Shown here in pieces: positions 38,581 through 63,388 of a stretch of 63,388 nucleotides of DNA. The first letter of the stretch is position 1. Each line of letters opens with the position of its first letter. Source of the stretch: Prevotella sp. (GTDB lineage: Bacteria; Bacteroidota; Bacteroidia; Bacteroidales; Bacteroidaceae); the NCBI GenBank assembly GCA_017483805.1, contig JAFUUL010000127.1, forward strand, positions 1 through 63,388. The letters run 5' to 3'. The notes under the pieces were generated by a model that saw only the letters and a list, made by a program, of their open reading frames with translations, had not been told where the DNA came from and made no database searches. The position numbers and the translations under genes are program-made.

Positions 38581-38617
38581 CACGCAAATTCAAACTTATA
38601 TTTATCAATAAGGTATT

Positions 38618-42376: not shown

Positions 42377-42386
42377 AGAGGTAAAC

Positions 42387-42935: not shown

Positions 42936-42961
42936 GAATCAAGAGTTAAGAATTAAGAGTT

Positions 42962-43543: not shown

Positions 43544-43656
43544 TCAACCGAGGCCGTCTATCATAGGAAAAAAAGGGGGACAACCCTGCTATCCTGCTTC
43601 TCACGGAGTCAAGCCGCTCATTTGCAATGTGTTAGGGGTAGCAGGATTGCTTCTCA

Positions 43657-43689
43657 ACCCTGCTTCTACCCTGCTTCCACCCTGCTTCT
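43657..43689. repeat. Three 11-bp tandem repeats
   Basis: ACCCTGCTTCT, ACCCTGCTTCC and ACCCTGCTTCT. A looser copy lies near 43575. It is part of a gene-free region (43544-44082) that also holds the 22-bp array. Confidence 0.7.
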
Positions 43690-43708
43690 GGCTCGGAGCA
43701 ACTTTTCA

Positions 43709-43818
43709 TTTTGGCTGGAGCCGCAAGACCTTTTGGCTAGAGTCGCAAGGTCTTTTGACTGGAGCCGCAAGACCTTTTGGCTAGAGCCGCAAGACCTTTT
43801 GGCTGGAGGCGCAAGGAA
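43709..43818. repeat. Five 22-bp tandem repeats (minisatellite)
   Basis: The consensus starts TTTTGGCTGGAGCCGCAAGA and ends CC; there are five consecutive units with a few changes each. Each unit holds a GGCT-nn-AGCC-type palindrome. Since 22 is not divisible by three, a protein read through it would cycle frames, and the frames here have no recognisable protein, so it is treated as non-coding. Confidence 0.8.
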
Positions 43819-44007
43819 GTTTGAAGGCTTCTTTCTCCCGGTTTCAAGGCCATTTCCGCCCGGTTTTCGCCATACCTGTCCCCGATAACAAGCATCGCTA
43901 CGGGCGTAAAGTGCCATTGAAACGCGCCCAGCAGGGCCAGAAGCAGAATCTGGACGCCTTTTCTTTTTGCGAAAAAAAGCAAACATCTGCTAAATACGGA
44001 CCTAATA

Positions 44008-44039
44008 TTTGCCCATATCATACCTTTTTCGTACCTTTG
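44008..44039 (+). promoter_or_regulatory. Promoter of the OmpA-family lipoprotein gene
   Basis: TTTG (44008-44011), 20 nt, TACCTTTG (44032-44039), with a partial second TACCTTT upstream at 44020. Confidence 0.75.
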
Positions 44040-44082
44040 GCCGCGCCAACAACAGATTATTAACAAAAAATCATTGAAGGAT

Positions 44083-44940: not shown

Positions 44941-44957
44941 AAGTGGGGCTCAGCCGA

Positions 44958-46943: not shown

Positions 46944-46956
46944 TCAATTAAGCAAT

Positions 46957-47262
46957 ATGAAGAAGACTATCCTTTTGTTCGTACTGGTGCTGACCGCCGT
47001 GGTCTGCCAGGCGAAAGACATTAAGACCGTGGTGGTCACTACCACGCCGCAGATGCATTGCGCTACCTGCGAAAAGAAAATCAAGGGCAACCTGCGTTTC
47101 GAGAAAGGGGTGAAGAAGATAGAGACCGATATCCCCGCACAGACCGTCACCATCGAGTATGATGCTGAGAAGACCAACGTAGAGAAACTGCTCAAGGCCT
47201 TCCCCAAGTTCGGCTACGAGGCAAAACCCGTAGAGCCGAAGACTCCCCAGAAATCCAAATAG
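46957..47262 (+). CDS. Periplasmic heavy-metal-associated (HMA) domain protein
   Basis: 101 residues. The signal peptide MKKTILLFVLVLTAVVCQA is followed by one HMA domain with the metal-binding motif MHCATCEKKI. This is a copper- or mercury-type carrier fold outside the inner membrane. It starts 13 bp after the receptor gene and forms one unit with it. It converges with the giant surface-protein gene, with stop codons adjacent. Confidence 0.88.
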   Translation: MKKTILLFVLVLTAVVCQAKDIKTVVVTTTPQMHCATCEKKIKGNLRFEKGVKKIETDIPAQTVTIEYDAEKTNVEKLLKAFPKFGYEAKPVEPKTPQKSK

Positions 47263-50200
47263 TTATCTCACCACGACCTTCCGGCCATTGCAGATATAGA
47301 GGCCCGCTTTTGTAGGGCGGCTGTCCAACTTCACGCCATCGGCGGTGTACCAGATGTCAGCATGGGGTACAAGGTCGACGTCGGCTGTTGAGGGCTGGAT
47401 TATCTCCTCGATACCAGTAGTAGTGCCGTCGGCCGTGGACCTGATGGCGATGGAATTGGCTGTGCGGGCACCGCCGGCGGTGGGCAGATTCCATACGGCT
47501 ACAGGCAGGCGGTCGGAGGGCACACAGAGATAAGCCGTGTTGGCCGCCATCACATCGCGGCTGTCACCATAGAGATGCAGACGGTAGAAGCCGGCTGCAT
47601 CTTCTGCTTTCGGGCCGTCGCTGGTCAGTGTCTGTGCCTGCTGGTCGTAGGTCCACGTCCAGTGCACGTTGGTCAGGATAAACTTGGTGTAGCCAGAGAC
47701 ATCTTCATAGTATAGTTGCCCCTCCGCCACATGGGCCTGCATCAGGTTGTCCGTGCCGAAAGCGGTAGCCGTGGACGACGGGGCCGTGGTGATGGCAGGC
47801 GTGAACAGGGGCACGTGGTAGGTGGCAGTGGCGGGCACGCCGCTGACCTGTCTCATCACGATGCCATCGTCGGCAGGCACGTAGCCGTCCTCATCGACGG
47901 CGGTCAGTGCCACGGTGGCCGTATTGAGGTCGTAACTGTCGTAGGTCACGGCGAAGGCATCGGCATTGTTGGTGGTGAGATGGCCCGTCAGTGCATGGTC
48001 GATGCCGTGACTGCGGCTTTCAGTGGCCCAGGCCACGCCGCCTATCTGGTGCATGGTCTTGAAGATGTTGGTGACGCCGATGATGTAGACCTCGGCATCG
48101 GCCGAGAATGTGATGACGGCATCGGCATTGGCCGTGAAGTGGTACTTGTACTGCTGCTGGTCGGCATCGACATCGTCGGTGACCTCCTCTGTGGCCGACA
48201 CACTGGCAGGCTTACGGCTGCTGCGGATGTAGATGTAGTAGGAGGCAAAGTCGTCGCCCGGCTTGGGCACGATGACGGTGCTGCCGGCCGTGAGCATCAA
48301 CTTGCCGTCGCGCCAGGTGTGAGGGAATACCACCGACGAACCCCCGCCAGCGGGAATGGCCGTGGGTGGATTGCTGACCGTGCTCTGCATGTCGAGCGTC
48401 AGTCGGTCTGCCGACTTGTCGCTGATGCTGAATCCGAGGCCCTCGGTCTCAGGCAGCAGGCCCAGGGTATGGCTGACCAACTGGGCACCATCGACGAAGT
48501 AGGACCCATACTTGCGGCTGTCGTAATCGGCGGTGACGGCCTGTTCTAGGTCGCCGCTCTCCGTCCAGGTATCCACATCGCGCCGCCCTTCATGAGCCCG
48601 TGTAGACCCTGTGCCGTATTCTATCCGCGTCAACCTGAAGTTGTCGGCCACAAACCATCGCGCCGCCACGTTGTCGAAGTTCTTCACGCCGATGCGCAGA
48701 GTGCCGTTGGTCACCTGGATGGCCGATGTGGAGTAGGTGTTGAAGTCGGTACCCTCGACATCGACAACCACGCGCTCATCGAAACTGCCGTTGTTGGCAT
48801 AGAGACAGCAGGTGGGCTTGAAGATGGCCCCGGCCTCGTCGTTCAGCGAGTTGTACATATCGGCACTGACGATGTAGTAGCCATTGGGCACGCTGAGGGT
48901 CTGGTAGTAGTCGAAATAAGAATCGCTGTGCGGAGGTGTGCCCCATGCCCAGAATTCTATAGCAGCATTGTTTAGCAACTGCCGATTGCTATTGGCACCC
49001 GTGATGGTCCAGCCTGTAGTAGAGCCGTCGAAACCGGGATTGACGATGCTGCTCGTCATGTCGGTCGCCTTGTCGTACACAGCAGCGTCGCTGTAGTGCG
49101 GGTCCTCGGCATAGCGGTCATCGTCGGCTCCGCCCACGCTCGCCTTCGTGTCGGCGAAATACTTGGTGAAGTCCCAGGTGTAGGGATAGGTCTGACGGGG
49201 CTGTGCGCCGATGGTGATGATCCATGTGTTCTGGTTGGCCACGTACTTCATGTTCTGTGAGTAACTGGTCAGGGTGACATAGGCCTTGCCCCAGCCGTCC
49301 TTGTAGGTGAAGGAGGCCGTGGCATCGCCACCGTCGGACTTTGAGGCACCCGTGCCGGCGTTCAGGTTGCCCTCCAACGAGATGGTCCACACCTGTGGGG
49401 CGTTGGGGGCGTTCTGCGAATCCTTGGGCAGAAAGACCAGGGTGTGCTCGTTGCCGTCGCAGACATACTGATGGGCTACCTGGCGCGCTTCGGTCTCATC
49501 GCCGTCGACATAGGCCATCAGTTGGGGCGCCATCGACGAGTTGTAGTCCCATCCCGGCTCGTGCAGTTCAATCTGCTGGATGCTGATGTAGACGTTGTCG
49601 GCCACCTCGAAGACTGCGTCCAGACAGCCGTCGGCATCCAGTTGGTCGGGCGTGGCGTCGGGGTTCACTTGGAACATATAGGTGCTGGTCTGGCCGGGAA
49701 TGTTGTAGAAGCAGTTGCCAATCTTGTAGATCTCGTTGATATACTTGCCGTTCACGTCGACCAGGTTCTGCATCTGCACACGCTCGGCCAGGTCATCCTG
49801 GTGGCGCGTCCAGCGCACCTCTATCCACTGGCCGGGCTTGACCTTGGGGATGACCACCTGGCCGCCACGCAGTATCATCAGGTTGCGGCAGGCATAGTCC
49901 CCATTGGTCAACTTGGGCACACCCACATTGTTGATGCGCTCGTTGTCCATCTCAACACCCAACTGCTTGCCGCTCTGGGTGGTGCGCAGATAGAGGCCAG
50001 AGGTCTCGGGGATGACTAGGGCATTGGTGCCCACGACGGAGTGGTTGTAGTAGTAGATGATGGACGATTCGGGGTGGGAGACACCCATCTTGCGCACAAA
50101 GCACCAGTCCTTCGTGTCGTCGCCAGTGGCCGATGCATCGACGGGCTCCTCGAAGGTGTAGGTGTTGCTCCAAGTGCCTACGTTCTTGGGCGTCCAGTTG

Positions 50201-53200
50201 CCCAGCCTGGGCAGCAGGTCGCCCTCGAAGTTCCACACATGGCTGCTGTAGGCCACGGTGAGCACGCCCTCGAGCGCGATGGTCTCGCTGTTGTAGGTGC
50301 AACTGGCGTAGATGGGGATGGTGCCACCAAGACCTTCGGGCAGACCGGAGATGGTCAGTCGGTTGCCGTCCTGAGTGTAGGCGGGCGTGATGCCAGCCAG
50401 GTCGCCCAGGATGCCGCTGGTCATGCGACTGGTGTCGAACGAGAAGTTGCTGCCGCCTTGGATGACGACGGTGTAAGAGCCCTGAGTGTTGGTGATGACA
50501 GGTGCGGTCTCGTTCAGTGCAGCACCCCTGACGCGGTATACCATCGTGTGGGTGATAGACCCCAGTCGCGCCTGCAGCACCACATCGCCAGTGCCCTCGA
50601 TGACTAGGTTGTCGCCGTCGAAATAGGCCACCGACACCTCTTTGCTCATAAAGGAATAGACTACTTTCGACTTCAGCACGTCGTTGTCCAGTCCGCTGTA
50701 GTTCTGGATGGTGATGTCGTCCTTTGGGGTGAAGGTCGTCTTGCCCGTGGCGTCGATGGTCTTCTCGACAGGACTCGTCACGCTGAAATCGATGACATAG
50801 ACCTTATAGGTGCCGGTCTTGCCGGCCAGCAAACCAGAGCCGCTGCCCGTGACCGTCACTTCGTAGGAGCCGTAGGCACCCACGCGCTGCGTCACCGTGC
50901 CGTCAGCGCTGATGCTCTGGCAGATGTTACCGTCGCTGCCGCCGCTGTCGGCGGTGCGCTCGTAGTTGAGCGTCGTCTCGCCCTGGTTGATGACGTAGTT
51001 CTTAAAGGTGCCGCCGGGGGCCGTGTAGGTCTCTTCACCATAGTAGAACACCATGTCGGACATCAGCCGGATGTAGTTGACGAAGAGGCCCAGGTTCGAC
51101 GACGGATTGATGATATCGACATAACCGTCGCGATTGGCGATGAAGTACTGCGAGGCGCTGGTCTCGTCGACGTAGAAATGCTCTACGGCCCCTGAATTGA
51201 GCAGGTCGTTGACACCGTCGAGGTCCATTTCCGACTGCATGCCTTCTGCATAGGCATTGATCTCAATCTGCATACCCTTGCGAACGGGGATGCGCAGTAT
51301 GCCACCATACCCATAGCGGGCTGCATTCTGTTCATTACTGCCCTTGCCGAACAGGTGCAGGCGGCCGTCGCCGTTGTTCTTGGCCCATGTCAGTCGCATT
51401 TTGTAGCGCGACTCCAGACCGACGGCCTGCACCAGCGGCTCGCCATTGGCCTGGATGAAGTTCTCGAATTGCTCAGTGTCACGAAGCAGATTATAACTGG
51501 TATAGGTGCCCGACCAGCCTTCAGCACCATACATCGCCTGATGATTATAATATTTATAGGTACGGAAGTCCCAATAACCATTGACGGCCATCAGTCTCAG
51601 TGTCTTGGTGATGGGGGAGAAATAGTTCTTGTAGGCATCGGTAGGCTGTACGGTAAGTGTCACCTCGTAGTAGCCCTGATCTGCATCGGCTGGGGCCGTC
51701 ACTTCGCCGGTGGCGTTGTTGACGCTGATGCCGGTCAGTGAATGGGTGATGGTGTAGGTGCCGGTATTCTCGTAGTAGGCAGAATAGTCGCTGTCGCCCA
51801 TCTTAATGGTGAAGTAAGATGGTATGGCACTCTCCCCTGCAAACAACACGTCGTTGTCGTTGCCCACCATCGTGGGATAATTGAAATCAAGTACTGGTTG
51901 CTGGCGGTAGGCTTCAATTTGTGTGATTGTCACGTCGCTGTCGCTGGTGTTGGTGATAGTGACCGACGATGCACTGCTGTTAGTGGTGGCGGTTAGCAGC
52001 CGAGTGCCGTTGGCGGTTGCTGTCGTAACTGCAGTATTGGTGAGGCTTAGTGTGCCGCCGCCCGTTGCCGTCAGGGCGAAATACAGGTTGTAGCCTGCTG
52101 GTACGGTGTAGAATTCGCCGGGAGCCAGCACGAGGTTGGGCGTCTCGGTATAGTCGAAACTATAGAGCCGTGTGGTGGCCGTTGCCTCAGCGAAGTAGTC
52201 GGTCTCGGCAAAGGTGGCCGTCAGCAAACCTACACCCTGGCCGATGCGTACCTTGTATTCGTCGGTGCCATCGCGGTAGTAGGTACATCGGCCATTATCC
52301 AGTGACTTCGACGGAGTGTTGCTGTTGGCATTTGCGAACCCCTCATCTCCGGTATAACTAAACGTCACGTCGCCATAGAAACCTTTTGTTTCCTCGAAGT
52401 GTACAGCGTTGTCCATCTCGTCACCGCTGTGCCCATAGAGGTAGGGGTTGGCCATCTGCAGGTCAATAGTACCCTTCGTCTCGTCCAACAGACCATCGTC
52501 TACATCGTATGTGATGGTGATGCTGTTCAGCAGGAACTGATAGTAGTCCTTGGTACCAGTGCTTGTGAGTTGTATCGTCAACTCTTCGCCCGACAGTCCG
52601 CTTACTGTCAGCATGCTATTGGCTGTAATGGTGTGGCCAGCATCGCTGTTGATGCTCACCGTGGGTGAGTGCTGTGCTTTCGAACCAATGTTCAGTTTGA
52701 CACTACGGAAATTGAAGGTGCCCGTGGCCCCGCTCTTCTTGCGTGGCTTGATGGTGATTTTGCCGTTCTGTGCATTGGTTGAGGTATCACCGTTCTTCAC
52801 CAGGAAATTGCCCGATTTGTAACTGATGCCGTTTTTGCCCTCGAATTTCAGGTTAAAACCTGGTATGTCTCGGTCCATTCGGTTCAGGTTGGAGTTCTGG
52901 TCGGGAAAAAACAACAGCGACTGGTCAATGAGGTTGATGGTGGTGCCCGACATCTTGGTCAGCGTGGCACTGTTCAGATAGAGCGTTGGATAGGTATTTG
53001 TGTCGGGTGTGGTGGTATCGTCGCCAGAAGGTCTTCCGGTGTCTTTGGTTTCTGGGAATACATAATATGTTACACCACCCATGAGCAGTGTACTGAATGA
53101 GAAGGTCTGCCATGCGTTGGCTGTGACGGATGAGGCACTGATTTTCTCGAGTACGTTGCCATCGGTGTCTGTCAGGCGCAGTCCATTGGCCGCTGTCATC

Positions 53201-54771
53201 AGTGCGTAGATGGTGAGTGTGCCATTGATGCCCTTTGTGGGGGTGAATGCAAAATAGGAACCCTTTGTAGGAATGCCGTCAGGAGCATAGACATGGCTAT
53301 AGCCTCCGGTGTCTATACCGTAAAGCGCACCGGCAGGATTGACCTGCTGTGTCTCCAGCGGGCTGCCGATGCCTATCGTGAGCCAGTTGCCACTGAGGGT
53401 CTCCGGCAGATAGCCTGTTCCACTGACAGTCATGGTCTCGTAAGTATCGGGAGTGGTGGGCGTGAATGTGGCTGTTGCCTCAGACTCACCAGTGACGTTA
53501 ACGGTGTGTTCGGCATAATACTCCACGCCATCGATCGTAACACGAGCGGTGATGGTGGCGGTGCCGTTATGGTGGAAGGTGACACTGGGGCGCCCTTTGC
53601 CGTCAGTCACGACGGTGGCTACGGTGGTGTTATTCGACGTGTAGGTAGGTGTCTGCCCGCTGTTGTTATATATGCTAGGTGTCTTCGTGTCGCCACAATT
53701 ACGATTGGTAGATGCAGAATTGAAGGCCAGAATGGGGCGGATGTAGAAATAGTCGAGGGCATAGTTGGCCGAGCCTCCGCTAACGCTGACAGGCTGTAGG
53801 GCAGTAGTCTGACACACCTGGCTGAACGCCCCCCATGAGCCTGTGCCAGTGTATGTCAGTAGCGATGTGTCGCCAGAGCGGAAAGTGAAGGTGGTCTTAT
53901 TGTTGGCATAGGCACCACCACTGATCTGGTAGGCACCGACGGGTAGCGTTTTGGGTATGTTGAAGGGCGTGACGGTATAGCCGCCTGCACCCATTGACGA
54001 ACGGCTGCCGTTGCCCACTTGCTCGGTGCGGGTCAACACATCTTCGGCTTCAGTAAAATAGAGTATATCGGTTTCACTCGTTTGGCTGTAGGTTAGTCGC
54101 CCCTCATAATTATTTGTACTGAGTGTTAGGTTGTATTTATACCAGGGATCGGTATTGTGGTCACGATGCCACAATGTACCACTCACATTAATGTATCTTG
54201 GAAATCCATAAGTGATGGTGGAGCCTTTTGTGCCGTAGCCAGTAGCCAGGGTTGCCAGCGTGTTGCCCTCTGAGTCCTGTCCGTAAATGGTGTAGCGATA
54301 CTGGTTGCTGAACACCACGGCAGCCACAATGCCACCATATCGGTCGAGCGTCACGGTGATGTCGTTGCCTGTCTCGCTGATGTCATAACATTGGTAGCCA
54401 GTCTGTGCCGAGAGAGTTTCGTTCAACTCGCCGCGGTTGATGGTTGCATACACTCCATTGTAATGCTGCAATACCAGCACATCGCCCTGCATGACGGGAA
54501 TGGTGACGGTGGCACTGCGAGTACCCGAGCCAAAATTATGGAGTCCCCATTGCCCACCATCTCGATAGCGCAAGTCGCCGTCCGTTGGCAGCACGGCGGG
54601 TGTATTGGTCTGGAAGTTATAGAGGGTGGCATCGCTCTCTTCGTAGTCAGGCATAGTGACAGATGTGCCCAGCGTGCGGGTATAGCCGTCGGCTCTAGCC
54701 GTATGGCTGATAGCCATAAACAGCAAGAGGAAGAGCTGGGTGCTGAAGCGATATGTGACAGGTCTGATCAT
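47263..54771 (-). CDS. Giant 2502-residue secreted surface protein
   Basis: Not assigned to a known family. Signal peptide in MIRPVTYRFSTQLFLLLFMA; the body is almost wholly beta-rich, Ser/Thr/Asp-rich sequence with recurring short modules (for example VTFHHNGTATITARVTIDGV, a Big-like domain around residues 365-430). It ends with WYTADGVKLDSRPTKAGLYI then CNGRKVVVR, the same tail type as the MBG protein and the M6 peptidase. It is the last gene after the Mfa2-like gene, 6 bp apart, so a tip, stalk or accessory adhesin of the fimbrial operon is likely. No enzymatic motif was recognised. Confidence 0.75.
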   Translation of the reverse strand: MIRPVTYRFSTQLFLLLFMAISHTARADGYTRTLGTSVTMPDYEESDATLYNFQTNTPAVLPTDGDLRYRDGGQWGLHNFGSGTRSATVTIPVMQGDVLVLQHYNGVYATINRGELNETLSAQTGYQCYDISETGNDITVTLDRYGGIVAAVVFSNQYRYTIYGQDSEGNTLATLATGYGTKGSTITYGFPRYINVSGTLWHRDHNTDPWYKYNLTLSTNNYEGRLTYSQTSETDILYFTEAEDVLTRTEQVGNGSRSSMGAGGYTVTPFNIPKTLPVGAYQISGGAYANNKTTFTFRSGDTSLLTYTGTGSWGAFSQVCQTTALQPVSVSGGSANYALDYFYIRPILAFNSASTNRNCGDTKTPSIYNNSGQTPTYTSNNTTVATVVTDGKGRPSVTFHHNGTATITARVTIDGVEYYAEHTVNVTGESEATATFTPTTPDTYETMTVSGTGYLPETLSGNWLTIGIGSPLETQQVNPAGALYGIDTGGYSHVYAPDGIPTKGSYFAFTPTKGINGTLTIYALMTAANGLRLTDTDGNVLEKISASSVTANAWQTFSFSTLLMGGVTYYVFPETKDTGRPSGDDTTTPDTNTYPTLYLNSATLTKMSGTTINLIDQSLLFFPDQNSNLNRMDRDIPGFNLKFEGKNGISYKSGNFLVKNGDTSTNAQNGKITIKPRKKSGATGTFNFRSVKLNIGSKAQHSPTVSINSDAGHTITANSMLTVSGLSGEELTIQLTSTGTKDYYQFLLNSITITYDVDDGLLDETKGTIDLQMANPYLYGHSGDEMDNAVHFEETKGFYGDVTFSYTGDEGFANANSNTPSKSLDNGRCTYYRDGTDEYKVRIGQGVGLLTATFAETDYFAEATATTRLYSFDYTETPNLVLAPGEFYTVPAGYNLYFALTATGGGTLSLTNTAVTTATANGTRLLTATTNSSASSVTITNTSDSDVTITQIEAYRQQPVLDFNYPTMVGNDNDVLFAGESAIPSYFTIKMGDSDYSAYYENTGTYTITHSLTGISVNNATGEVTAPADADQGYYEVTLTVQPTDAYKNYFSPITKTLRLMAVNGYWDFRTYKYYNHQAMYGAEGWSGTYTSYNLLRDTEQFENFIQANGEPLVQAVGLESRYKMRLTWAKNNGDGRLHLFGKGSNEQNAARYGYGGILRIPVRKGMQIEINAYAEGMQSEMDLDGVNDLLNSGAVEHFYVDETSASQYFIANRDGYVDIINPSSNLGLFVNYIRLMSDMVFYYGEETYTAPGGTFKNYVINQGETTLNYERTADSGGSDGNICQSISADGTVTQRVGAYGSYEVTVTGSGSGLLAGKTGTYKVYVIDFSVTSPVEKTIDATGKTTFTPKDDITIQNYSGLDNDVLKSKVVYSFMSKEVSVAYFDGDNLVIEGTGDVVLQARLGSITHTMVYRVRGAALNETAPVITNTQGSYTVVIQGGSNFSFDTSRMTSGILGDLAGITPAYTQDGNRLTISGLPEGLGGTIPIYASCTYNSETIALEGVLTVAYSSHVWNFEGDLLPRLGNWTPKNVGTWSNTYTFEEPVDASATGDDTKDWCFVRKMGVSHPESSIIYYYNHSVVGTNALVIPETSGLYLRTTQSGKQLGVEMDNERINNVGVPKLTNGDYACRNLMILRGGQVVIPKVKPGQWIEVRWTRHQDDLAERVQMQNLVDVNGKYINEIYKIGNCFYNIPGQTSTYMFQVNPDATPDQLDADGCLDAVFEVADNVYISIQQIELHEPGWDYNSSMAPQLMAYVDGDETEARQVAHQYVCDGNEHTLVFLPKDSQNAPNAPQVWTISLEGNLNAGTGASKSDGGDATASFTYKDGWGKAYVTLTSYSQNMKYVANQNTWIITIGAQPRQTYPYTWDFTKYFADTKASVGGADDDRYAEDPHYSDAAVYDKATDMTSSIVNPGFDGSTTGWTITGANSNRQLLNNAAIEFWAWGTPPHSDSYFDYYQTLSVPNGYYIVSADMYNSLNDEAGAIFKPTCCLYANNGSFDERVVVDVEGTDFNTYSTSAIQVTNGTLRIGVKNFDNVAARWFVADNFRLTRIEYGTGSTRAHEGRRDVDTWTESGDLEQAVTADYDSRKYGSYFVDGAQLVSHTLGLLPETEGLGFSISDKSADRLTLDMQSTVSNPPTAIPAGGGSSVVFPHTWRDGKLMLTAGSTVIVPKPGDDFASYYIYIRSSRKPASVSATEEVTDDVDADQQQYKYHFTANADAVITFSADAEVYIIGVTNIFKTMHQIGGVAWATESRSHGIDHALTGHLTTNNADAFAVTYDSYDLNTATVALTAVDEDGYVPADDGIVMRQVSGVPATATYHVPLFTPAITTAPSSTATAFGTDNLMQAHVAEGQLYYEDVSGYTKFILTNVHWTWTYDQQAQTLTSDGPKAEDAAGFYRLHLYGDSRDVMAANTAYLCVPSDRLPVAVWNLPTAGGARTANSIAIRSTADGTTTGIEEIIQPSTADVDLVPHADIWYTADGVKLDSRPTKAGLYICNGRKVVVR

Positions 54772-54777
54772 TTCGTG

Positions 54778-55785
54778 TTACAGTTCTTCGTTTTGTATCC
54801 TTAGTGCCCATGAGAGCACGTTGATATGGATGGTGATGTAGCACCAGGTCTCGTGGTTGCCCGTGCCTTCGAAGCCGAAGTCGAGCCGGTAGTCGTACTC
54901 GCGGTCCAGATACTCCTGGATGCCGTAGTGCTGGTATTCGTAGGCGTTGCGGGCCAGTGCCAGATAGTAGCACAGGTCGATGTTGACCACCTCATGGCCG
55001 GTGGCGCGGTTGCGAATGATGAGGCGGGCATTCTGGCGGGCGTCGTCGTGACTGATGAGCCGCCCCAGCGACAGGTCGTAGTGGGCATGCCGCTCGGCCA
55101 GCACGCTGTCGGTTAGGGTCTCGGTGGTCCACTGGGCGAAGGGACGGTAGTTGACGCTGTCGCTGACCAAGACTTCGTACTGCTCGTGGTTGATGTTGGT
55201 CAGCGTGTCGCGGCGGAACAGGATGATGTTGAGGTCGTTGGTCAGTCGCATCAGCGGGACGGTGGCCTCAGTCGGTTCGCGCTCCGGCACCTCGATGTCT
55301 ACGGGCTGAAGTGTGTTCCAGATGGTGTCCAGATGCAAGGCTGGCACTTGGCCTTCGCCGTCGGTGGGCAGGGTGAACTGCAACTTGCTGATGGGCTCGC
55401 CGTCAGTGGGGGCAGTCATCAGCAGTGGTTGGTCGGAGACGGAACGGCCAGTGGCGTAGAGCCGATAGCGGCCGGGGGTGAGACCCTCGAAGTTGAAGGC
55501 GAAGGACGGGTTGCGCAGAGGCTGTGCTGTGGCGGTGTTCTGCGCCGTCTGTTGCTCTACCACGATGCTGGTCTGGGCATCGACCACATAGGCCGTGGCC
55601 TGCTGGACATGGTCGTTGAACATATTGGCACGAGCCGTGTTGTAGTCGTAGCGCAAGATGACGCGCAGCGGGTTGCGACACTCAGGGCAGTCAGAGCGGT
55701 CGTCCTCCATCATGCTGCAGGAGGCAAGAGTCAGGAGGCAAGAGGCCAGAAGCCAGAGGGCGTTATGTTTATTTGTCAGTTTCAT
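54778..55785 (-). CDS. Mfa2/FimB-like fimbrial anchor lipoprotein
   Basis: 335 residues from MKLTNKHNALWLLASCLLTL; an ATG 24 bp upstream is possible. Lipobox LASC. The mature start SDCPECRNPLRVILRYDYNT, together with NMFNDHVQQATAYVVD, is typical of Mfa2/FimB-type proteins, which anchor the fimbria and limit its length. It is followed by the giant protein and preceded by three Mfa1-like subunits. A type C repeat lies at its 5' end. Confidence 0.82.
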   Translation of the reverse strand: MKLTNKHNALWLLASCLLTLASCSMMEDDRSDCPECRNPLRVILRYDYNTARANMFNDHVQQATAYVVDAQTSIVVEQQTAQNTATAQPLRNPSFAFNFEGLTPGRYRLYATGRSVSDQPLLMTAPTDGEPISKLQFTLPTDGEGQVPALHLDTIWNTLQPVDIEVPEREPTEATVPLMRLTNDLNIILFRRDTLTNINHEQYEVLVSDSVNYRPFAQWTTETLTDSVLAERHAHYDLSLGRLISHDDARQNARLIIRNRATGHEVVNIDLCYYLALARNAYEYQHYGIQEYLDREYDYRLDFGFEGTGNHETWCYITIHINVLSWALRIQNEEL

Positions 55786-55795
55786 ATTTCGATCA

Positions 55796-55831
55796 TTATC
55801 ATTCATCACTTATCACTCATCACTTCTCACG
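55796..55831. repeat. Type C repeat between two fimbrial genes
   Basis: TTATCATTCATCACTTATCA then CTCATCACTTCTCACG. It spans the gap between the third Mfa1-like gene's stop and the upstream alternative start of the Mfa2-like gene. Confidence 0.65.
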
Positions 55832-57236
55832 GTGTCGGACGCCCAATGCCGGACAGACTGTTGAGCGTCAGGTTGTAGGCATTATTCCTGACGACGCCGT
55901 AGGTGTGGGTCTCATCATGCTTTATCTTATAGGTGTAGTACATTCTGCCTTCACGGAAGCCTTTGGTGTAGCCGCTTAGTTCAGTGGCCAGGGCGTTGAG
56001 GGCGGTGGTCTCCTCGGCACTGAAGGATTCGTTGGTCAGCGTGACGGTCACCGACCCGTCGGCGTTGAGAACAATCGTCGGATGCTTGTAGACCTCATCC
56101 ACCGTCCGGTCTTTGATGGCAGCATACTCCGTTCGTCCTTTGTGTGTGGCCCAGCCAGTCTTGTAGTAGGCAATGAGTTGCTCGGGGCTGGTGTAGAGGG
56201 TGTTGTCGTCATGGAAGTTGAAACACTCGCGCATCAGCATATTAGAGGCATCTTTCAGTTGCACCTCGACGATGATCTCCGTTTGGTCGGCTTCGGTATC
56301 GGTGGTGTTCTCTGCCACGTAGACAGCATCGCCTGCCTCGTAGGCTTGCTGCTGATAGACGTCGAAAATGTTGGGAGCCGACGTGTCTAAACTGATGGGT
56401 ATGCCACTGCCGGTCAGGGATGTGGCCCATCTCTCGGGGGTCTTGTAACCGTTGCGGATGGCGTAGCACTGGGTGTTATAGTTGTTCAGCGCCCATGCCA
56501 TGTGGTGGAACCGAGCCTTGGCCGATGTGCCGTTCAGCGTGATGCCAGTCAGGTTGTCGCCCGATGCCAGATTGCTGGCCACGCTCACCTTGGCGGCGGC
56601 ACGCTCTACGTCGACATTCAGATATTTGGCACCTGAAGCCCTCGCCTCTTCCTCCGTGTCATAAAGGTACGACTGCTTCGACGCGTCGTTGGGGTAGACC
56701 ACGCGTAGCACCGTGCCGTCTTCTTTGTAGGTGCAGGTCATGTAGAGGCCTACGTGCTCTTCGGTACTGCCCACGCTGTTGATGGTCATGGCCTGTATGT
56801 CTGACCGCTTCTTGCCCTGGAGCGATGTGCCGTTTAGGTAGAGCATATCGTCCTTGACGCTGAATCCCGTCGAGGTGGTGTTCAGCAGTGTCAGCACGTA
56901 GAGTTTGCGGTCGTCGTAGTTGTGGGTGCCTGTCACTCGCTGGGTGATGTTAATGGAAGTGCTGTTGCCTGGGTTATTGACCAATTGGTCGATGACCACA
57001 GCACTCTTCAGCGTGGCATTTCCCTCTGCCGTTCCTTCGAAGATAGCCAAGATTCCGTCATAGATGGCGTTCTCCTGTTGTTCGGAGGCGCGGGTCGCGG
57101 CGTGCTGATGGTCGGTGATGTGCAGGTTGAGATAAGCCGCTGTACGGGAGGACGCCTGCTGAAGAGGCTGCTCTTCCAGCATCTCATCGACGCTGCAAGA
57201 GGCAAGAGGCAGGAAGCCAAAAGCCATGTGGTCCAT
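55827..57236 (-). CDS. Mfa1-like fimbrillin with out-of-frame signal peptide (possible phase-OFF allele)
   Basis: Fimbrial subunit of the Mfa1/FimA fold: mature start ASCSVDEMLEEQPLQQ, then YLNLHITDHQ, DVERAAAKVSVAS and a C-terminal EGRMYYTYKIKHD (donor-strand-like). The in-frame start at 57236 gives only MDHMAFGFLPLASC, a poor signal. A proper signal, MKRYRLYIWTTWLLASCLLP, begins at 57259 in another frame. The frames would join if one more copy of the 7-bp repeat at 57195-57208 were present, giving LLPLASCSVDEM. Either a phase-variable OFF state or a frameshift mutation. Confidence 0.8.
   Translation of the reverse strand: MDHMAFGFLPLASCSVDEMLEEQPLQQASSRTAAYLNLHITDHQHAATRASEQQENAIYDGILAIFEGTAEGNATLKSAVVIDQLVNNPGNSTSINITQRVTGTHNYDDRKLYVLTLLNTTSTGFSVKDDMLYLNGTSLQGKKRSDIQAMTINSVGSTEEHVGLYMTCTYKEDGTVLRVVYPNDASKQSYLYDTEEEARASGAKYLNVDVERAAAKVSVASNLASGDNLTGITLNGTSAKARFHHMAWALNNYNTQCYAIRNGYKTPERWATSLTGSGIPISLDTSAPNIFDVYQQQAYEAGDAVYVAENTTDTEADQTEIIVEVQLKDASNMLMRECFNFHDDNTLYTSPEQLIAYYKTGWATHKGRTEYAAIKDRTVDEVYKHPTIVLNADGSVTVTLTNESFSAEETTALNALATELSGYTKGFREGRMYYTYKIKHDETHTYGVVRNNAYNLTLNSLSGIGRPTP
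57195..57211. repeat. 7-bp repeat (GCAAGAG) in signal-peptide codons
   Basis: Two complete GCAAGAG units (57195-57201 and 57202-57208) plus GCA. One extra unit (+7, that is +1 in frame) restores an ideal lipoprotein signal. The paralogous Mfa2-like gene has the uninterrupted equivalent WLLASCLLTLASCS. Confidence 0.8.
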
Positions 57237-57284
57237 ATGTACAGTCTGTATCTCTTCATTTTTATCTATTAACTATTCACTATC

Positions 57285-59033
57285 TTATAGGTCTTGGTTG
57301 TGGTTTGTCCAGTTCTTGATGGTCAGCGTGGCGTTGAGCAGTTGCTCCACTTGGTCGTCGGCATTCTGCGTCAACTCAGGGATGACGGGCGAGCCCACGT
57401 GTGTCACCCTGCGGATGCTGACGGTGTACCAGTTGTTGCGCACCACGCCATAGCGGCCCAGATAGTCGGCATCATTACCGGCATAGGCAGCGGCAGGCGT
57501 CTCATCGGTCATGGCGGGTGCAGAGGACCAGGGCGTCAGTTCGTCGCCGAAGTGCTTGATGGGCACTCGGTAGTAGCAATAGCCCTGATGGTAGTAGTTC
57601 ACCACGATGTTGTTGGCCAAATAGGTGTCCAGTGCCAGTGCCTCGAAGGCAGTGACGCCTGCTCCGCTCGCTTGGGCCGTCTGGGTGATGCTGACGGTGG
57701 CCAGGCCTGTTGAAGAATTGCCGAGCACGGCAATCTTTATGTGCTTTGTTTCGCCTGCGGCATAGGTTCTCACCCAGTTGCGCAGGTCGCTGTTGGTCTG
57801 CCAGAGCCACTCGCGCAGATATTCATCGATGGGCTTGGCGGTGCTCACCTCACTTGAACGGCGACGGGCAAACGACTGGTTGGCACTGGTGCCCTCTTCG
57901 CTGACGGTGGTGGCAGGCTCCTGATAGACGATGTCGCTGCCAGTGACGTTGGTGGTGTAGAAGTTGTTGCCTCCGTTCAGTTGAAGGCGCACCAGCACGG
58001 AGGTTGTGCGGTCATCCTGCATATGGCTGACGGCGAAGGTGTTCTCGGCACAATAGTCGCTGGCCCCCATCGCCTGCCACTGCTTGAAGACGGCATCGGG
58101 CGTGCTGCTATTGTCGTAGTTGGCATCCGTGGCCCAGTAGGTGCGGTATTTGCCAGTGGATAGGGCTACACTCTCAACAAAGCGATAGCCTGTAGACGAG
58201 GCATTATAGGGCAGCCAACTCTCGTCGAAGTGGCGCACCAGATAGTAGTTGGTGTTATAATTGTAGAGCGAGTACTGAATGTCTGCTCTCGTAAAGTCAA
58301 TGTCGGTGTTGCCTGCGACGCGTAGGTCGAGGCTGGCGTGCGTGTCTACCGTCACCTTGACGGCAGCACGCTCCAGGTAGATTTGCACTCCAGCCGGATG
58401 GGTTGAGGCTTCTTCGGCGCTGCCATAGAGATTGTTTGGATCTATCCATGTCAGCGTCTCTGTCTTGCCAGAGCCATCGTTGGCAGTAGCCAAAGGACTG
58501 CTACTCATGACAAAGTAGTCTGTTCCATCAATTTCAGTTGCAATATTATTGATAACCGTTTGTTTCAGACTGGCATAGGTGCTGCCAGCATTAATGGTTG
58601 TAGACAGGTTGGCAATAGCCAAGATATATAAGTGGTCACCTGCCGTGATGTTGTCTGCACTAATTTGTATTGTTTTCTCCGTGTGGTGGGTTATTTGCTG
58701 GTGTTCGTCTGTTGCGGGCGAATAGAGCACATTGTAGGTGCTGGCTACACGCATCTGGTCCTCTGTCCCAGTGCCATGTAGCAGCACGAGGGTTAGTGTT
58801 TTGATGGTGCTTTCAGTATCTTCACCATCGTCGAAGGAGCCATTGGCGGCTCGTGTAAAGCCGCCAATGGCGTCCGGTGAGATGTCTAAGGTCAGCCACG
58901 CCTTGCCCTCGGCATTGAAACACGACGTGATGTCACGCTGTGCTTCAACACCCTCATCAGCCTCTTCCGTGCTACAACAAACACAGACGAAAGCCAATGA
59001 CAAGAGCAGTGCAATGTTTCTGAACCAGTTCAT
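57285..59033 (-). CDS. Mfa1-like fimbrial subunit
   Basis: 582 residues. Lipoprotein signal MNWFRNIALLLSLAFVCVCC, N-terminal fimbrillin domain (AWLTLDISPDAIGGFTRAAN, where an Arg in FTRA is a likely Rgp-type cleavage or maturation region), the family motif YLERAAVKVTVD and a C-terminal strand HQGYCYYRVPIKHFGDELTP. Probably a minor or alternative subunit of the same fimbria. The gene lies 9 bp after the first Mfa1-like gene. Confidence 0.82.
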   Translation of the reverse strand: MNWFRNIALLLSLAFVCVCCSTEEADEGVEAQRDITSCFNAEGKAWLTLDISPDAIGGFTRAANGSFDDGEDTESTIKTLTLVLLHGTGTEDQMRVASTYNVLYSPATDEHQQITHHTEKTIQISADNITAGDHLYILAIANLSTTINAGSTYASLKQTVINNIATEIDGTDYFVMSSSPLATANDGSGKTETLTWIDPNNLYGSAEEASTHPAGVQIYLERAAVKVTVDTHASLDLRVAGNTDIDFTRADIQYSLYNYNTNYYLVRHFDESWLPYNASSTGYRFVESVALSTGKYRTYWATDANYDNSSTPDAVFKQWQAMGASDYCAENTFAVSHMQDDRTTSVLVRLQLNGGNNFYTTNVTGSDIVYQEPATTVSEEGTSANQSFARRRSSEVSTAKPIDEYLREWLWQTNSDLRNWVRTYAAGETKHIKIAVLGNSSTGLATVSITQTAQASGAGVTAFEALALDTYLANNIVVNYYHQGYCYYRVPIKHFGDELTPWSSAPAMTDETPAAAYAGNDADYLGRYGVVRNNWYTVSIRRVTHVGSPVIPELTQNADDQVEQLLNATLTIKNWTNHNQDL

Positions 59034-59042
59034 ATACGCGGC

Positions 59043-60782
59043 TTAGAGGGTTACATGCTGGTTGCGAAGTGCCCAAGAAAGAATGTTGATACGTACCTTC
59101 AGGTATGCGTCGATTTCGTCGTCAGGCGTGTCAGTTGGAATATCCGGCACTGAAGGTTTGCCTATGTGCTTGATGCCATCTAACGTAATGCGATACCAGT
59201 TGTTGCGAACGATACTATAGCGGCCTAAATAATTCTGTGCACGATTGGTGGTGGAATAGATGTCGTCGTAAGTAGTGCCAGCAATCTCGGCAGCAGGTTT
59301 CAAGGGAGTCTCGATGTCGCCAAAGTGCTTGATGAGAACCTTATAATAAGCCATTCCGTTTAAGAAGTAACTGAACATTACATTTGCATTTATCTCGGTC
59401 TTAATGGTTGATGCATCTTCGCCACCGCTTAGTGTTATAGTATTTACTTTCGCGCTACCGTCAACAGCATTAGTGAAAGTGACATCAGTTGCTGTTGCTC
59501 CATACTTGCTTGTAATATACTCCTTCACTTTATTTTCCATATCAGGCACACTGAATATCTCGTCAGCACCGCCAAGTGAAGAAGTGTAGAAACTTGTGCC
59601 GCCATTAAACGGAACAGCCAGCACGATACGGGTCGTGTATTGCTGCAGCAGGCTTGCCTCGTCGATTGTGTTCTCTGCCAAGTAAACTACATCGCTAATT
59701 GATTTGCTGAGTCCAACTTGCTTACCAATCACGTCTGTGCTAGGAACATTCTCTGGTGCTGTCGAAGTGTAGTTGGCATCTTCTGCCCAAGGGATGCGAT
59801 AGTTCTTTGTGGTCATGCTTGGGTCAACTGCTGTCTCTTCAACAAAGCGGTAGAACGGTGTAGAACGCACTCCACTGTAATAGCCAAGATAAGTTGTGCT
59901 AACTTTACGGGTGAGATAGAATGATGTGTTGTAGTTCTGTACGTCCCATTTGATGCCACTGGGGTCATACTTTACTGCATCATCCGTGGTCAGACCCGTG
60001 GATGTGCCAGAAGGTACTGACAAGTCAATCTTTGCGGCCGCACGCTCGACATAGACTTCTACAAACTTGGAGCCCGCGTAGGCTTCTTCGATTGAATTGT
60101 AGATGTGGTCTGCTGTTAGTTCAGGCATGCACTTGATTTGTGGGCTTGATGGAGCAGAAGAGCCACCACCAGCAGTACTCATTGGTGGGTTGGTCATCAG
60201 TAGACCATTGGTTGTAGGGTCACCTATCTCATTCATGACATAGTCTTTAAACTCATTAAAGGTGGTGGTGGTTGATGTACTCAAAACTTGATCACCACTT
60301 TTTGTGGTCACCGTCAGGCCGCGATTTGCGGTAACCGTAAACTTACCATTGGTATTGATGGCTACAAAAGCATAGATATGATCACTACCAGTAATAGCAT
60401 TCTCACCCTTGTTGATCTGCTGTGCATAAAGCAAGCGGTCTGAGATTTGGTTGTTGCTGACAGGCTGGTTTACTTTTTCCGTAGGCAGTGTGTAGGCACC
60501 ATTAAACTTTGCTGTGGTCTCCTCAGTACCCTTGAACAGTACCAGTACGGCATCCTTCACCTCATACTCTGCTGCTGTTCCGTGGTCAAATTCGCCATTG
60601 GCACGAGTTGTTCCCGCTGTTGTCGGCAGGTTAATGGCAATGTTAACGTAGGCATTGCCCTGGGCATCAAACTTGCTGTCAAGAGAAGAGTCTTGAACAT
60701 CATCGTTGTCACTTGAGCATGCAGTGAAACTGAGTCCTACTGCGAAGAGTGCTCCGAATAAAAACAGTTTTTTCATAAACAT
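59043..60782 (-). CDS. Mfa1-like fimbrial subunit (likely main)
   Basis: 579 residues from MFMKKLFLFGALFAVGLSFT; the Met three codons in would also do. Lipobox TACSS. The order is the same as in its neighbour: AYVNIAINLPTTAGTTRANG (N-terminal domain with the TTRA region), VYVERAAAKIDLSV, then MAYYKVLIKHFGDIETPLKP and a C-terminal RINILSWALRNQHVTL. The best match to a classical Mfa1-type major subunit of the three. First intact gene after the interrupted DUF3868-type gene. Confidence 0.85.
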   Translation of the reverse strand: MFMKKLFLFGALFAVGLSFTACSSDNDDVQDSSLDSKFDAQGNAYVNIAINLPTTAGTTRANGEFDHGTAAEYEVKDAVLVLFKGTEETTAKFNGAYTLPTEKVNQPVSNNQISDRLLYAQQINKGENAITGSDHIYAFVAINTNGKFTVTANRGLTVTTKSGDQVLSTSTTTTFNEFKDYVMNEIGDPTTNGLLMTNPPMSTAGGGSSAPSSPQIKCMPELTADHIYNSIEEAYAGSKFVEVYVERAAAKIDLSVPSGTSTGLTTDDAVKYDPSGIKWDVQNYNTSFYLTRKVSTTYLGYYSGVRSTPFYRFVEETAVDPSMTTKNYRIPWAEDANYTSTAPENVPSTDVIGKQVGLSKSISDVVYLAENTIDEASLLQQYTTRIVLAVPFNGGTSFYTSSLGGADEIFSVPDMENKVKEYITSKYGATATDVTFTNAVDGSAKVNTITLSGGEDASTIKTEINANVMFSYFLNGMAYYKVLIKHFGDIETPLKPAAEIAGTTYDDIYSTTNRAQNYLGRYSIVRNNWYRITLDGIKHIGKPSVPDIPTDTPDDEIDAYLKVRINILSWALRNQHVTL

Positions 60783-60799
60783 AATGTTTTAGGAAGTTA

Positions 60800-61452
60800 T
60801 TAATTAATTGTTTGATTAGAAATGCTATTGAGATAGAGCGTCAGTTCGCTCACGTTGTGGCGGGCAGCGTCGTTGTCCACCTGGCTGAAGAAGTGCTTGG
60901 CGGCTGCATAGTCGCCACGGCGGGCGGCCAGCACGCCACGGGCTATGATTGCCGTCTCGCTCTGACCGGCCTTCATCAGGTAGCGCTCGGCAGCGGCCTG
61001 GTCGTTCTTGTTCAGCGCCGTGATGGCTGCGTTAAGGTTGGCCGTCTCATCCTCAGGATACATTCGGACGGCAATATCGAAAACATCATTATACTCCTGT
61101 GAGCCAGGCGTATAGGTGTTGGCCACGAGGAACATCTCGTTCAGGCTGAGTTGCTGGGGCTTGGTGCGTATCAGTTCGCGTGCCTCTTCTACCGAGAACG
61201 GACGGATGGTGTAACTGACGCGGTAGTCGCTGTGGCGCAGTGCCGGGAAGACATCGGCCAGCAATTGCTGCCATGCGGCGGGATAGCGGCGCTTCATGAG
61301 TTGCTCCTTCTGGTCGGCCTCCATGGCTGAGGTGGCTATATCCCTGATGGCTTGGCGGTCGGGCAGTGCCTGGCCGCTGTCGTCCAGCCACTTGATGAGG
61401 CCCTGCCAGTCCTCTGGCGTCGATGCCACGCTGAAGACCGATGCTGGCAGCG
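60800..61452 (-). pseudogene. DUF3868-type fimbrial-locus gene, cut by a group II intron
   Basis: The C-terminal ~217 codons survive: SVASTPEDWQGLIKWLDDSG, YRVSYTIRPFSVEEARELIR and TPR-like NAAITALNKNDQAAAERYLM. Proteins of this type precede Mfa1 genes in Bacteroidales. Upstream of the intron insertion point the frame runs nine further codons into intron sequence with a chance ATG at 61492 (MANPNIS). Intron sense is opposite to the gene, so splicing cannot rejoin the gene's message. The 5' part lies beyond the window. The function of the fimbrial operon's first gene is therefore lost unless a second copy exists. Confidence 0.75.
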
Positions 61453-61697
61453 GTGTGCCACGAGGCGCACATGATATATTAGGGTTGGCCACCCTCCATA
61501 TAGAATGAAGCCGTAACTATCAGAGAGATGAGGGCAGTCCCCTCGCAGTCGGCTTGCAGGAGCAGACTGCAAACCCTCTGCAAGCTGCTTTGCACGCAAG
61601 TGCATGGTGGTGAGCGTTGCAGAGAGGTACGCATGACGGAGCTGAACGCGAGTGAACCGTTATTGAAGCACCGTTAAATCGTGAAGTCACGTCGAAA

Positions 61698-61719
61698 GTC
61701 GGAAGTCGCTGCCTCCGAC
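61698..61719 (+). other. EBS1 stem-loop of the group II intron
   Basis: GTCGGA-AGTCGCTGCC-TCCGAC. A perfect 6-bp stem presents CGCTGCC, the complement of the seven bases directly before the intron. Confidence 0.75.
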
Positions 61720-62003
61720 GAGCAGGACAAGGCATGTAGCCTGCACAAGCTGGCCTTGTGGCGTGCGGTGTATAGACGGCAGGAACGTCATAGCAGGCTC
61801 TCTGATGGAACGTGGGAAGCAGCCGTGGGATGCCAAGGGAAATGCCGAAAGCAACCAGCAAGGCAGACAGGTACCGATGCCCACGGGTCTGTGGCGGATT
61901 ACCCCGTAGTAGTGTTGAAGCCGCTGTAATGGCGGTGGAGCGAAGGGGGGGACATGTCTTAGCCGAATGAATTGTACAACTTAACCTGTTTAAGGAGGAC
62001 ACA

Positions 62004-63293
62004 ATGCACGAAGCAAGTCCAAAGACAGTAAAACCATTTGAGATTGACCGCTGGCTTATCCAGCGAGCATGGTTGAAGGTGCGAGAGAACCGAGGCAGTG
62101 CGGGCATAGATAAGGAGACGATAAAGCAGTTTGATGAACATCGGGCTGACAATCTCTATAAACTGTGGAACCGCATGAGCAGCGGCTGCTACATGCCGAT
62201 GGCAGTGCGTCTTGTCGAGATACCTAAGCCCAATGGCGGCAAGCGTCCGCTTGGTATCCCATCAGTGACAGACCGCATAGCGCAGCAGGCGGCTGTGATG
62301 TACATAGAACCCTCGTTAGACCCCGTCTTTCATCCAGACTCGTATGCATACCGTCCCAACCGCTCCGCACATGATGCCATAGCCAAGGCAAGGAACCGTT
62401 GCTTCCAGTATGCGTGGGTGCTTGACATGGACATATCCAAGTTCTTTGACACGATAGACCACGAACTGCTCATGAAGGCAGTGAGGCTGCACGTCACGGA
62501 GCGTTGGGTACTGCTCTATATCGAGCGATGGCTCAAGGTTCCCTATCAGATGGCAGACGAGAGGCAGGTGGAACGCACCATGGGAGTACCGCAAGGCTCA
62601 GTCATAGGTCCCGTTCTCGCCAACCTCTTTCTGCACTATGTGTTCGACAAGTGGATGCAGATACACCATTATGACATACCCTTCGAACGCTACGCAGACG
62701 ACACCATCTGCCACTGCCGGACACGGGAACAGGCGGAACGTCTGAAAGCAGAGCTGGTAGCACGCTTTGAACAGTGCAACCTCAAACTGAATGAGGAGAA
62801 GACAAAGATTGTCTATTGTCCTACGAGCAACCGCCCCAAGCAGGACGGTGATGCTCCCGAGGAGTTTGACTTCCTTGGATTTACATTCAGGGCGCGAGGC
62901 GCAAGAAACGTGAAGCAGCAGGTGACCTTTACAAGTTTCCTGCCCGCAATCAGCAAGAAGTCACTCATGAAGATACGCGACAAGGTGCGCTCATGGGAAC
63001 TGCACAGGCTCATACAGAAGCCCATACAATACGTGGCGGCTGAAATGTCCCCGTACACTCGGGGATGGATAAACTATTACTCGCGCTTCGGACGCTCTGA
63101 GTTCCAGCAGGTGATGGTCTATCTGAACGTCACTATTGCCCGATGGGTCAAGCGTAAGTACAAGCGTTTCCACAGACGGCATCTGTTCCACGCCTTTCGG
63201 TGGCTTCAGAGAGTGTCAGAGCATGAACCTGCGCTCTTTCAGCACTGGCAGTGTGGCTATCTGCCCACACACGCCCCGAATGGTATGCGTTGA
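62004..63293 (+). CDS. ltrA: Group II intron reverse transcriptase/maturase
   Basis: 429 residues. RT blocks: KRPLGIPSVTDRIAQQAAVM, SYAYRPNRSAHDAI, AWVLDMDISKFFDTIDH, GVPQGSVIGPVLANLFLHYV and the active site YADD (230-233). The X/maturase domain includes GWINYYSRFGRSEFQQVMVY. The C terminus (LFHAFRWLQRVSEHEPALFQ) has no HNH endonuclease zinc motif, so it is endonuclease-minus and probably inserts at single-stranded or replication-linked targets. Preceded by a real Shine-Dalgarno AAGGAGG 9 bp before the ATG, unlike host genes, which suggests origin in another phylum. No frameshift is seen; the intron could be active. Confidence 0.95.
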   Translation: MHEASPKTVKPFEIDRWLIQRAWLKVRENRGSAGIDKETIKQFDEHRADNLYKLWNRMSSGCYMPMAVRLVEIPKPNGGKRPLGIPSVTDRIAQQAAVMYIEPSLDPVFHPDSYAYRPNRSAHDAIAKARNRCFQYAWVLDMDISKFFDTIDHELLMKAVRLHVTERWVLLYIERWLKVPYQMADERQVERTMGVPQGSVIGPVLANLFLHYVFDKWMQIHHYDIPFERYADDTICHCRTREQAERLKAELVARFEQCNLKLNEEKTKIVYCPTSNRPKQDGDAPEEFDFLGFTFRARGARNVKQQVTFTSFLPAISKKSLMKIRDKVRSWELHRLIQKPIQYVAAEMSPYTRGWINYYSRFGRSEFQQVMVYLNVTIARWVKRKYKRFHRRHLFHAFRWLQRVSEHEPALFQHWQCGYLPTHAPNGMR

Positions 63294-63311
63294 AATGGAC
63301 TGAGATATGAA

Positions 63312-63345
63312 GAGCCGTGTGATGGGAGACTATCAAGCACGGTTC
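63312..63345 (+). ncRNA. Group II intron domain V (catalytic hairpin)
   Basis: 34 nt: GAGCCGTGTGATGGGAGACT then ATCAAGCACGGTTC. It has the catalytic AGC triad near the 5' side, a GAGA tetraloop and the bulge before AGCACGG. Domain VI follows (63349-63383) with a bulged A near TCTACTC. Confidence 0.85.
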
Positions 63346-63388
63346 TGTGAGAGGGTGGAGGTGAAACTCCTCCGCTCTACTCGACAGA

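What the first reader, a model, noticed from the sequence alone, without database searches (positions are those of the whole stretch)
57180..57260. A fimbrillin one 7-bp repeat unit short of being ON
The Mfa1-like gene has its good signal peptide (from 57259) out of frame with the mature protein. Between them lie two copies of GCAAGAG. Adding one unit shifts by +7 (+1) and makes a continuous lipoprotein signal ending LLPLASCSVDEM, the same as in the Mfa2-like paralogue (WLLASCLLTLASCSMM). This fits slipped-strand phase variation of a surface structure; Bacteroidales usually switch fimbriae by invertible promoters instead. A simple one-off deletion is the alternative.
Basis: partly seen in the sequence, partly recalled or inferred. 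Interest (0 to 1): 0.82.

Follow-up and report, generated by a model that had tools for sequence, protein, structure and literature searches.

The report
Fimbrial gene switched by repeat slippage
The same assembled Prevotella genome carries two versions of one pilus-subunit gene that differ by a single 7-base repeat in the export signal, so the protein reads in frame in one version and out of frame in the other; this likely works as a slippage on/off switch for a surface fibre, although switching itself is untested.

Summary
Window 57195-57211 carries two GCAAGAG units inside the lipoprotein signal of a type V fimbrillin; from the conserved start (57259) the frame ends after 83 codons.

The decisive evidence is in the window's own assembly. 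A second contig, C149 (5745 bp), matches window 61535-55798 over its whole length. It differs only by one extra 7-bp unit and one mismatch five bases from its end, and it encodes the full 479-aa lipoprotein in frame. In ten near-duplicate contig pairs (71.9 kb) this unit is the only indel, against 7 internal SNPs. A sister Prevotella (88% identical) has the longer, in-frame array, so the two-unit form is probably derived; dN/dS is 0.16.

Because 7 mod 3 is 1, the array spells (LASCLLP)n in every frame. This resembles the Neisseria opa leader repeats, but in a Bacteroidales fimbria with no inverton in the short promoter region examined.

Cautions: only 2-3 perfect units; reversibility, rate and protein not observed; heptamer repeats are common in the genus and also occur in the signal of an LptC-like gene, so neutral slippage stays possible. 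I favour a low-rate, Opa-like translational switch (0.55).

The parts
57195..57211 (-). Perfect heptamer run: two GCAAGAG units on + (CTCTTGC on the coding strand); three units in the allelic contig C149
57192..57223 (-). Whole degenerate heptamer array (four units plus CAGC) that codes the hydrophobic core and lipobox of the signal peptide
57008..57259 (-). Reading frame from the conserved start in the window's two-unit allele: 83 codons and stop, out of frame with the fimbrillin
   Evidence: start supported
55827..57236 (-). Fimbrillin frame (PF15495; Mfa1-like fold) as open in the window, 469 aa; 479 aa and in frame from the conserved start in C149
   Evidence: (on the C149 copy)
57285..59033 (-). 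Second fimbrillin of the operon (PF15495, PF06321; NF038041 147.2 bits against a cut-off of 130)
   Evidence: run on the C149 copy
59043..60782 (-). First fimbrillin of the operon (PF15495; NF038041 163.6 bits against 130)
   Evidence: run on the C149 copy
54778..55785 (-). FimB/Mfa2-like anchor (PF08842), also with a heptameric signal array (55717-55744 match the three-unit pattern)
60800..61492 (-). 3' part of the operon's first gene; its DUF3575 part lies on contig C124 beyond the intron
61530..63385 (+). Group II intron (Rfam matches 61530-61628 and 63310-63385; maturase 62004-63293), antisense to the operon

Best explanation
The window holds the out-of-frame allele and contig C149 the in-frame allele of one fimbrillin gene, and loss or gain of one 7-base unit in the signal-peptide array likely acts as an Opa-like translational on/off switch. 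Shown: both alleles in one assembly, one unit apart; the frame each gives; the conserved start and lipobox; purifying selection on the gene. Inferred: the change arises by replication slippage and is reversible; the three-unit form is exported as a lipoprotein and built into a type V fimbria; the two-unit form ends as an 83-aa peptide and yields little or no exported subunit, perhaps also lowering the downstream anchor by polarity. Because 7 mod 3 is 1, the array spells the same hydrophobic lipobox peptide (LASCLLP)n in every frame, so the signal core tolerates any unit number and only the frame downstream changes.
For: C149 equals window 61535-55798 over 5745 bp except for one 7-bp unit and one mismatch 5 bases from its end and codes the 479-aa lipoprotein. 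In ten near-duplicate contig pairs (71,931 columns) there are 7 internal SNPs, 6 mismatches within 25 bp of a contig end, and this one indel. The sister species has the in-frame array length, dN/dS 0.16. The three-unit signal (MKRYRLYIWTTWLLASCLLPLASC) fits the published pattern for fimbrillin signals, the alternative window start (no Lys/Arg, 13 residues before Cys) does not (PMC11316588 passages). Own-genome matches to the three-unit pattern: 5, all in the two fimbrial signals or their C149 copy. No inverton-type repeat in L106:1050-1480.
Against: Only 2-3 perfect units. One indel event gives no rate; 13 other internal period-7 runs of 14 bp or more (3 of them 17 bp or more) did not vary. 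The sister array is interrupted. Heptamer runs are common in this window and genus, and one codes the in-frame signal of an LptC-like protein in two species, where a switch is not expected. A group II intron splits the operon's first gene, so the operon may be impaired anyway. Contigs may come from different samples.
Confidence: 0.55

Rival explanations
1. A recent one-off slippage deletion, or ordinary strain polymorphism, silenced the subunit in part of the population; there is no evolved switch and the array is a by-product of the genus-wide tendency to heptamer tandem repeats.
For: Short array; sister array interrupted; heptamer runs frequent in the genus and in this window; an LptC-like gene carries one in two species, in frame in both, while 0 of 28 other orthologues examined do; the operon's first gene is split by an intron.
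Against: Both alleles persist in an almost SNP-free background; in the own genome such arrays occur only in two surface-fimbria signals; purifying selection on the gene.
Confidence: 0.33
2. The two-unit allele is not off: translation from 57236 (or the Met at 57227) makes a subunit with a short, uncharged lipobox leader (MDHMAFGFLPLASC), so the switch changes amount or location rather than presence.
For: The array codes LPLASC in that frame too and the frame is open.
Against: The leader has no Lys or Arg and only 13 residues before Cys, against 2-4 positive residues and about 20 aa described for fimbrillin signals (PMC11316588, passages); the 57259 start is the conserved one.
Confidence: 0.07
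3. One of the two counts is an assembly error in a short repeat.
For: C149 belongs to a set of redundant contigs whose mismatches lie partly at contig ends; reads were not available.
Against: The repeat (17-24 bp) is far shorter than the roughly 141-bp contig overlaps, and no other indel occurs in ten pairs; the sister species has the longer count.
Confidence: 0.05

Closest known systems
Neisseria opa genes: CTCTT repeats in the leader-peptide region (PMC3960869, passages)
   Same: Tandem repeat, not a multiple of three, inside the signal-peptide code of a surface adhesin; unit number sets the reading frame.
   Different: Heptamer rather than pentamer, 2-3 perfect units, a lipoprotein signal, a type V fimbrial subunit in Prevotella; switching not demonstrated.
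Heptanucleotide repeats of Haemophilus influenzae: hmw1A/hmw2A promoters, AACAACC tract of a TonB-dependent receptor (PMC2651432, passages)
   Same: 7-bp units linked to surface proteins; frame change by unit number in one described case.
   Different: Long arrays (up to 38 units), mostly in promoters, other phylum.
Type V (FimA/Mfa1) fimbriae of Bacteroidales
   Same: PF15495 fimbrillins plus a PF08842 anchor; fold matches to 4jrf, Mfa1 5nf3 and FimA 6jzk.
   Different: Three fimbrillins before the anchor; the affected one scores 98.7 bits, below the NF038041 cut-off of 130; frame set by a repeat.
Invertible-promoter (inverton) control of Bacteroidales surface genes (listing only)
   Same: On/off heterogeneity of surface structures in the same order.
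   Different: No inversion repeat found in the 431 bp examined; here the reading frame changes, not the promoter.

Membership tests
Slipped-strand translational phase-variable locus | Tandem repeat in the coding start region with a unit length that is not a multiple of three | tested here: met
   7-bp units in the signal-peptide code
Slipped-strand translational phase-variable locus | Alleles with different unit numbers that put the gene in and out of frame | tested here: met
   Window two units, out of frame; C149 three units, in frame
Slipped-strand translational phase-variable locus | Hypermutable, usually long, perfect array | tested here: inconclusive
   2-3 perfect units; the only indel in 71.9 kb, but a single event
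Slipped-strand translational phase-variable locus | Reversible switching with a change in protein expression | not testable with these tools
   No reads, passage or protein data
Type V fimbrillin (FimA/Mfa1 family) | Fimbrillin sequence or fold | tested here: met
   PF15495 37.3 bits against 27; fold matches 4jrf, 5nf3, 6jzk
Type V fimbrillin (FimA/Mfa1 family) | NF038041 Mfa1-family score above the curated cut-off | tested here: not met
   98.7 bits against 130 for this subunit; the two upstream fimbrillins pass with 163.6 and 147.2
Type V fimbrillin (FimA/Mfa1 family) | Lipoprotein signal with conserved lipobox Cys | tested here: met
   C24 at least 90% conserved in 38 rows, in the C149 allele only; no signal-peptide predictor was available
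Inverton-controlled fimbrial operon | Inverted repeats flanking the operon promoter | tested here: inconclusive
   Only a 16-nt hairpin with an 8-nt loop in L106:1050-1480; more distant DNA not searched, and the link between C124 and the window is a 141-bp overlap

The most novel reading that the evidence does not exclude
Prevotella turns its heptamer tandem repeats into frame-neutral lipoprotein signals: each array spells the same export signal in all three frames, so surface genes such as this fimbrillin (and perhaps its Mfa2-like neighbour) become slippage-driven contingency loci, a second phase-variation route in Bacteroidales besides DNA inversion.
Probability: 0.3. Interest if true: 0.8.

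Novelty: new variant of a known kind. Interest (0 to 1): 0.6.

Why it matters
On/off variation of surface structures in gut and rumen Bacteroidales is usually credited to DNA inversion (established knowledge, listing). A repeat-slippage switch in a fimbrial gene would be missed by inverton surveys, would look like a pseudogene or a start-codon error in annotation, and can be counted directly in existing metagenome reads. Eight paper searches on repeats, slippage or phase variation (open-access full text, lists capped at 10-15 rows) listed no title that reports slipped-strand control of a Bacteroidales fimbria.

Tried and rejected
Assembly artefact: tested on 10 duplicated contig pairs; no other indel. 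Of the 21 contigs C134-C154 (20 fetched, plus C149), 10 have an identified counterpart: four were noticed, two, C149, and three more were picked and searched (3 of 3). The other 11 were compared only with the pieces held.

Wrong start codon as the cause: rejected, since the N terminus from 57259 is shared by homologues.

Inverton as the real switch: none found in the 431 bp searched.

A wide family of signal-peptide arrays: weak. Of 29 loci in other genomes (L047-L075), the script flagged 5 as near an ORF start (L051, L068, L069, L070, L073). L068 and L069 are one LptC-like gene in two species; L051 looks like a lipoprotein start with a loose array; I judged L070 and L073 spurious by reading, which is not tested. 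The reversed-pattern control also matched in several genomes (for example G180: 55, G233: 37), so the pattern is not specific to one repeat type. 0 of 28 other orthologues of the LptC-like gene carry the array (an earlier printout, showed 12 of these loci in the wrong orientation).

Cluster P0001 (479 aa, 4 members, 8 contigs, longest 109,104 bp) cannot be split by unit number, so I do not use it as proof of further in-frame copies; my notebook entry says more than the call bears.

Structure model: mean pLDDT 72.3, residues 1-41 under 50, so it says nothing about the signal.

PMC3711429, the only paper holding all terms, was checked by passages: general text on slippage, nothing on a Bacteroidales fimbria in the passages shown.

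Full report
What is there. The minus strand of the window carries a type V fimbrial operon: two Mfa1-family fimbrillins (59043-60782 and 57285-59033), a third fimbrillin (the gene in question), a FimB/Mfa2-like anchor (54778-55785) and a 2502-aa ORF with no Pfam or NCBIfam match. The third gene begins at ATG 57259: 6 of the 119 other listed homologues begin MKRYRLYIWTT, and the lipobox Cys is kept in 90% or more of 38 aligned homologues. In the window the frame from 57259 meets a stop after 83 codons (57010-57008), while the fimbrillin frame is open from 57236 to 55827 (469 aa) with an N terminus that has no Lys or Arg before the Cys.

Both alleles exist. The window is contig C75 of an assembly of 3.63 Mb in 199 contigs (91.7% complete, 7.2% contamination). 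Searching that assembly with the region returned a second place, on contig C149. C149 is 5745 bp and aligns over its whole length to window 61535-55798; the only differences are one additional 7-bp unit and one mismatch five bases from the contig end. In C149 the gene is a 479-aa ORF, MKRYRLYIWTTWLLASCLLPLASCSVDEM....

How unusual is that difference? The assembly holds other near-duplicate contigs. Ten pairs were compared (71,931 aligned columns): 7 internal SNPs, 6 mismatches within 25 bp of a contig end, and one indel, namely this unit (seven of the pairs also). Fourteen internal period-7 runs of 14 bp or more, four of them 17 bp or more, were in the compared set; one varied, this one, the longest. 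One event gives no rate, but it falls where slippage would put it. In the parts of the window searched (1-20000, 30001-50000, 50000-63388; 40 candidates scored in each search) C149 is the only long near-identical duplicate. One end of C149 lies in the group II intron and the other at an interspersed AGTGATG-type repeat. Whether C149 and the window contig come from one sample or two is unknown.

Which state is older? The sister MAG Prevotella sp. RGIG4792 (roe deer reticulum, L036, 88% identical) has the unit number of C149 (five in total, one altered) and reads in frame from a GTG start; dN/dS between them is 0.16 over 479 codons. So the gene has been under purifying selection, and the two-unit form is probably derived by loss of one unit. 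A doubled xASC motif seven residues apart near the N terminus occurs in 2 of the 240 homologous proteins held: this fimbrillin and its Mfa2-like neighbour. In the own genome the three-unit pattern YTYYTGV has 5 matches, all in those two signals or the C149 copy, with 1 match of the reversed control.

Mechanism. A 7-bp unit shifts the frame by one, and the coding-strand array reads (LASCLLP)n in all three frames. The signal core is therefore kept whatever the unit number; only the downstream frame changes. Inferred, not shown: replication slippage as the cause; export as a lipoprotein in the three-unit state, whose signal fits published features of fimbrillin signals (PMC11316588, passages); an 83-aa dead end in the two-unit state. 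A predicted model of the in-frame protein (mean pLDDT 72.3; signal not modelled with confidence) matches fimbrillins in the PDB: 4jrf, Mfa1 5nf3, FimA 6jzk. In the 431 bp around the presumed operon promoter on contig C124 there is a hairpin but no inverton-type repeat. C124 is linked to the window by a 141-bp overlap and by carrying the other part of the same first gene.

Against a true switch. Two to three perfect units is short, and the sister's array is interrupted. Heptamer repeats are a habit of the genus: 9 period-7 runs of 17 bp or more in this window against a shuffle mean of 0.0; 90 of 299 genus genomes match the three-unit pattern, though the reversed-pattern control also matches in several. 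A five-unit CTTTTGG-type array codes the signal of an LptC-like protein (19.8 bits against a cut-off of 21) in two species, in frame in both, and in 0 of 28 other orthologues examined. That gene has a match in 272 of 299 genomes, so its array is more likely neutral. The operon's first gene is split by an antisense group II intron on the window path: its two parts are adjacent in L036 and nearly so in L038. The operon may therefore be compromised for another reason.

Comparison. The closest working analogue is Neisseria opa, with CTCTT repeats in the leader region (PMC3960869, passages). Heptanucleotide repeats linked to surface proteins are known in Haemophilus influenzae (PMC2651432, passages). 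For Bacteroidales, the papers listed (listing only) and the passages shown of a 2025 review (PMC11868660) concern DNA inversion where they name a mechanism. Eight searches on repeats or slippage (some lists capped) showed no title on a slippage-controlled Bacteroidales fimbria; subscription papers are not covered.

Verdict. Phase variation by slippage is the best reading (0.55), with one recent slippage event and no evolved switch as a serious rival (0.33).

Noticed in passing
window 61530-63388 and C124 (L106) 86-1111: A group II intron with maturase, antisense to the operon, splits the operon's first gene (DUF3575 part on C124, rest at 60800-61492); the two parts are adjacent in L036.
   Followed up: yes
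own assembly: C137, C138, C140, C141, C142, C144, C145, C147, C149, C150: Ten small contigs are near-identical duplicates of parts of larger or equal contigs, so the assembly holds two versions of these stretches.
   Followed up: yes
window 8006-8120, 10267, 12400, 29909, 33481, 35993, 38541; L008, L023 and others: Heptamer tandem repeats of several sequences recur in this window and, as CTTGCYT, CTCCTGA or CTTTTGG arrays, in many genomes of the genus.
   Followed up: partly
L068/L069 1481-2155 (G189, G202): An LptC-like protein has a signal peptide coded by a five-unit CTTTTGG-type array, MESRLIRFWLLAFGFWLLVISC; absent in 28 other orthologues examined.
   Followed up: partly
window 16151-16600: Stretch upstream of a 1136-aa MBG-domain ORF with many relatives at about 73-82% identity elsewhere in the genome; no Rfam match.
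   Followed up: no
window about 43580-43917 and 13460-13568: Two further dispersed repeats; the second matches on both strands, as a palindromic element would.
   Followed up: no
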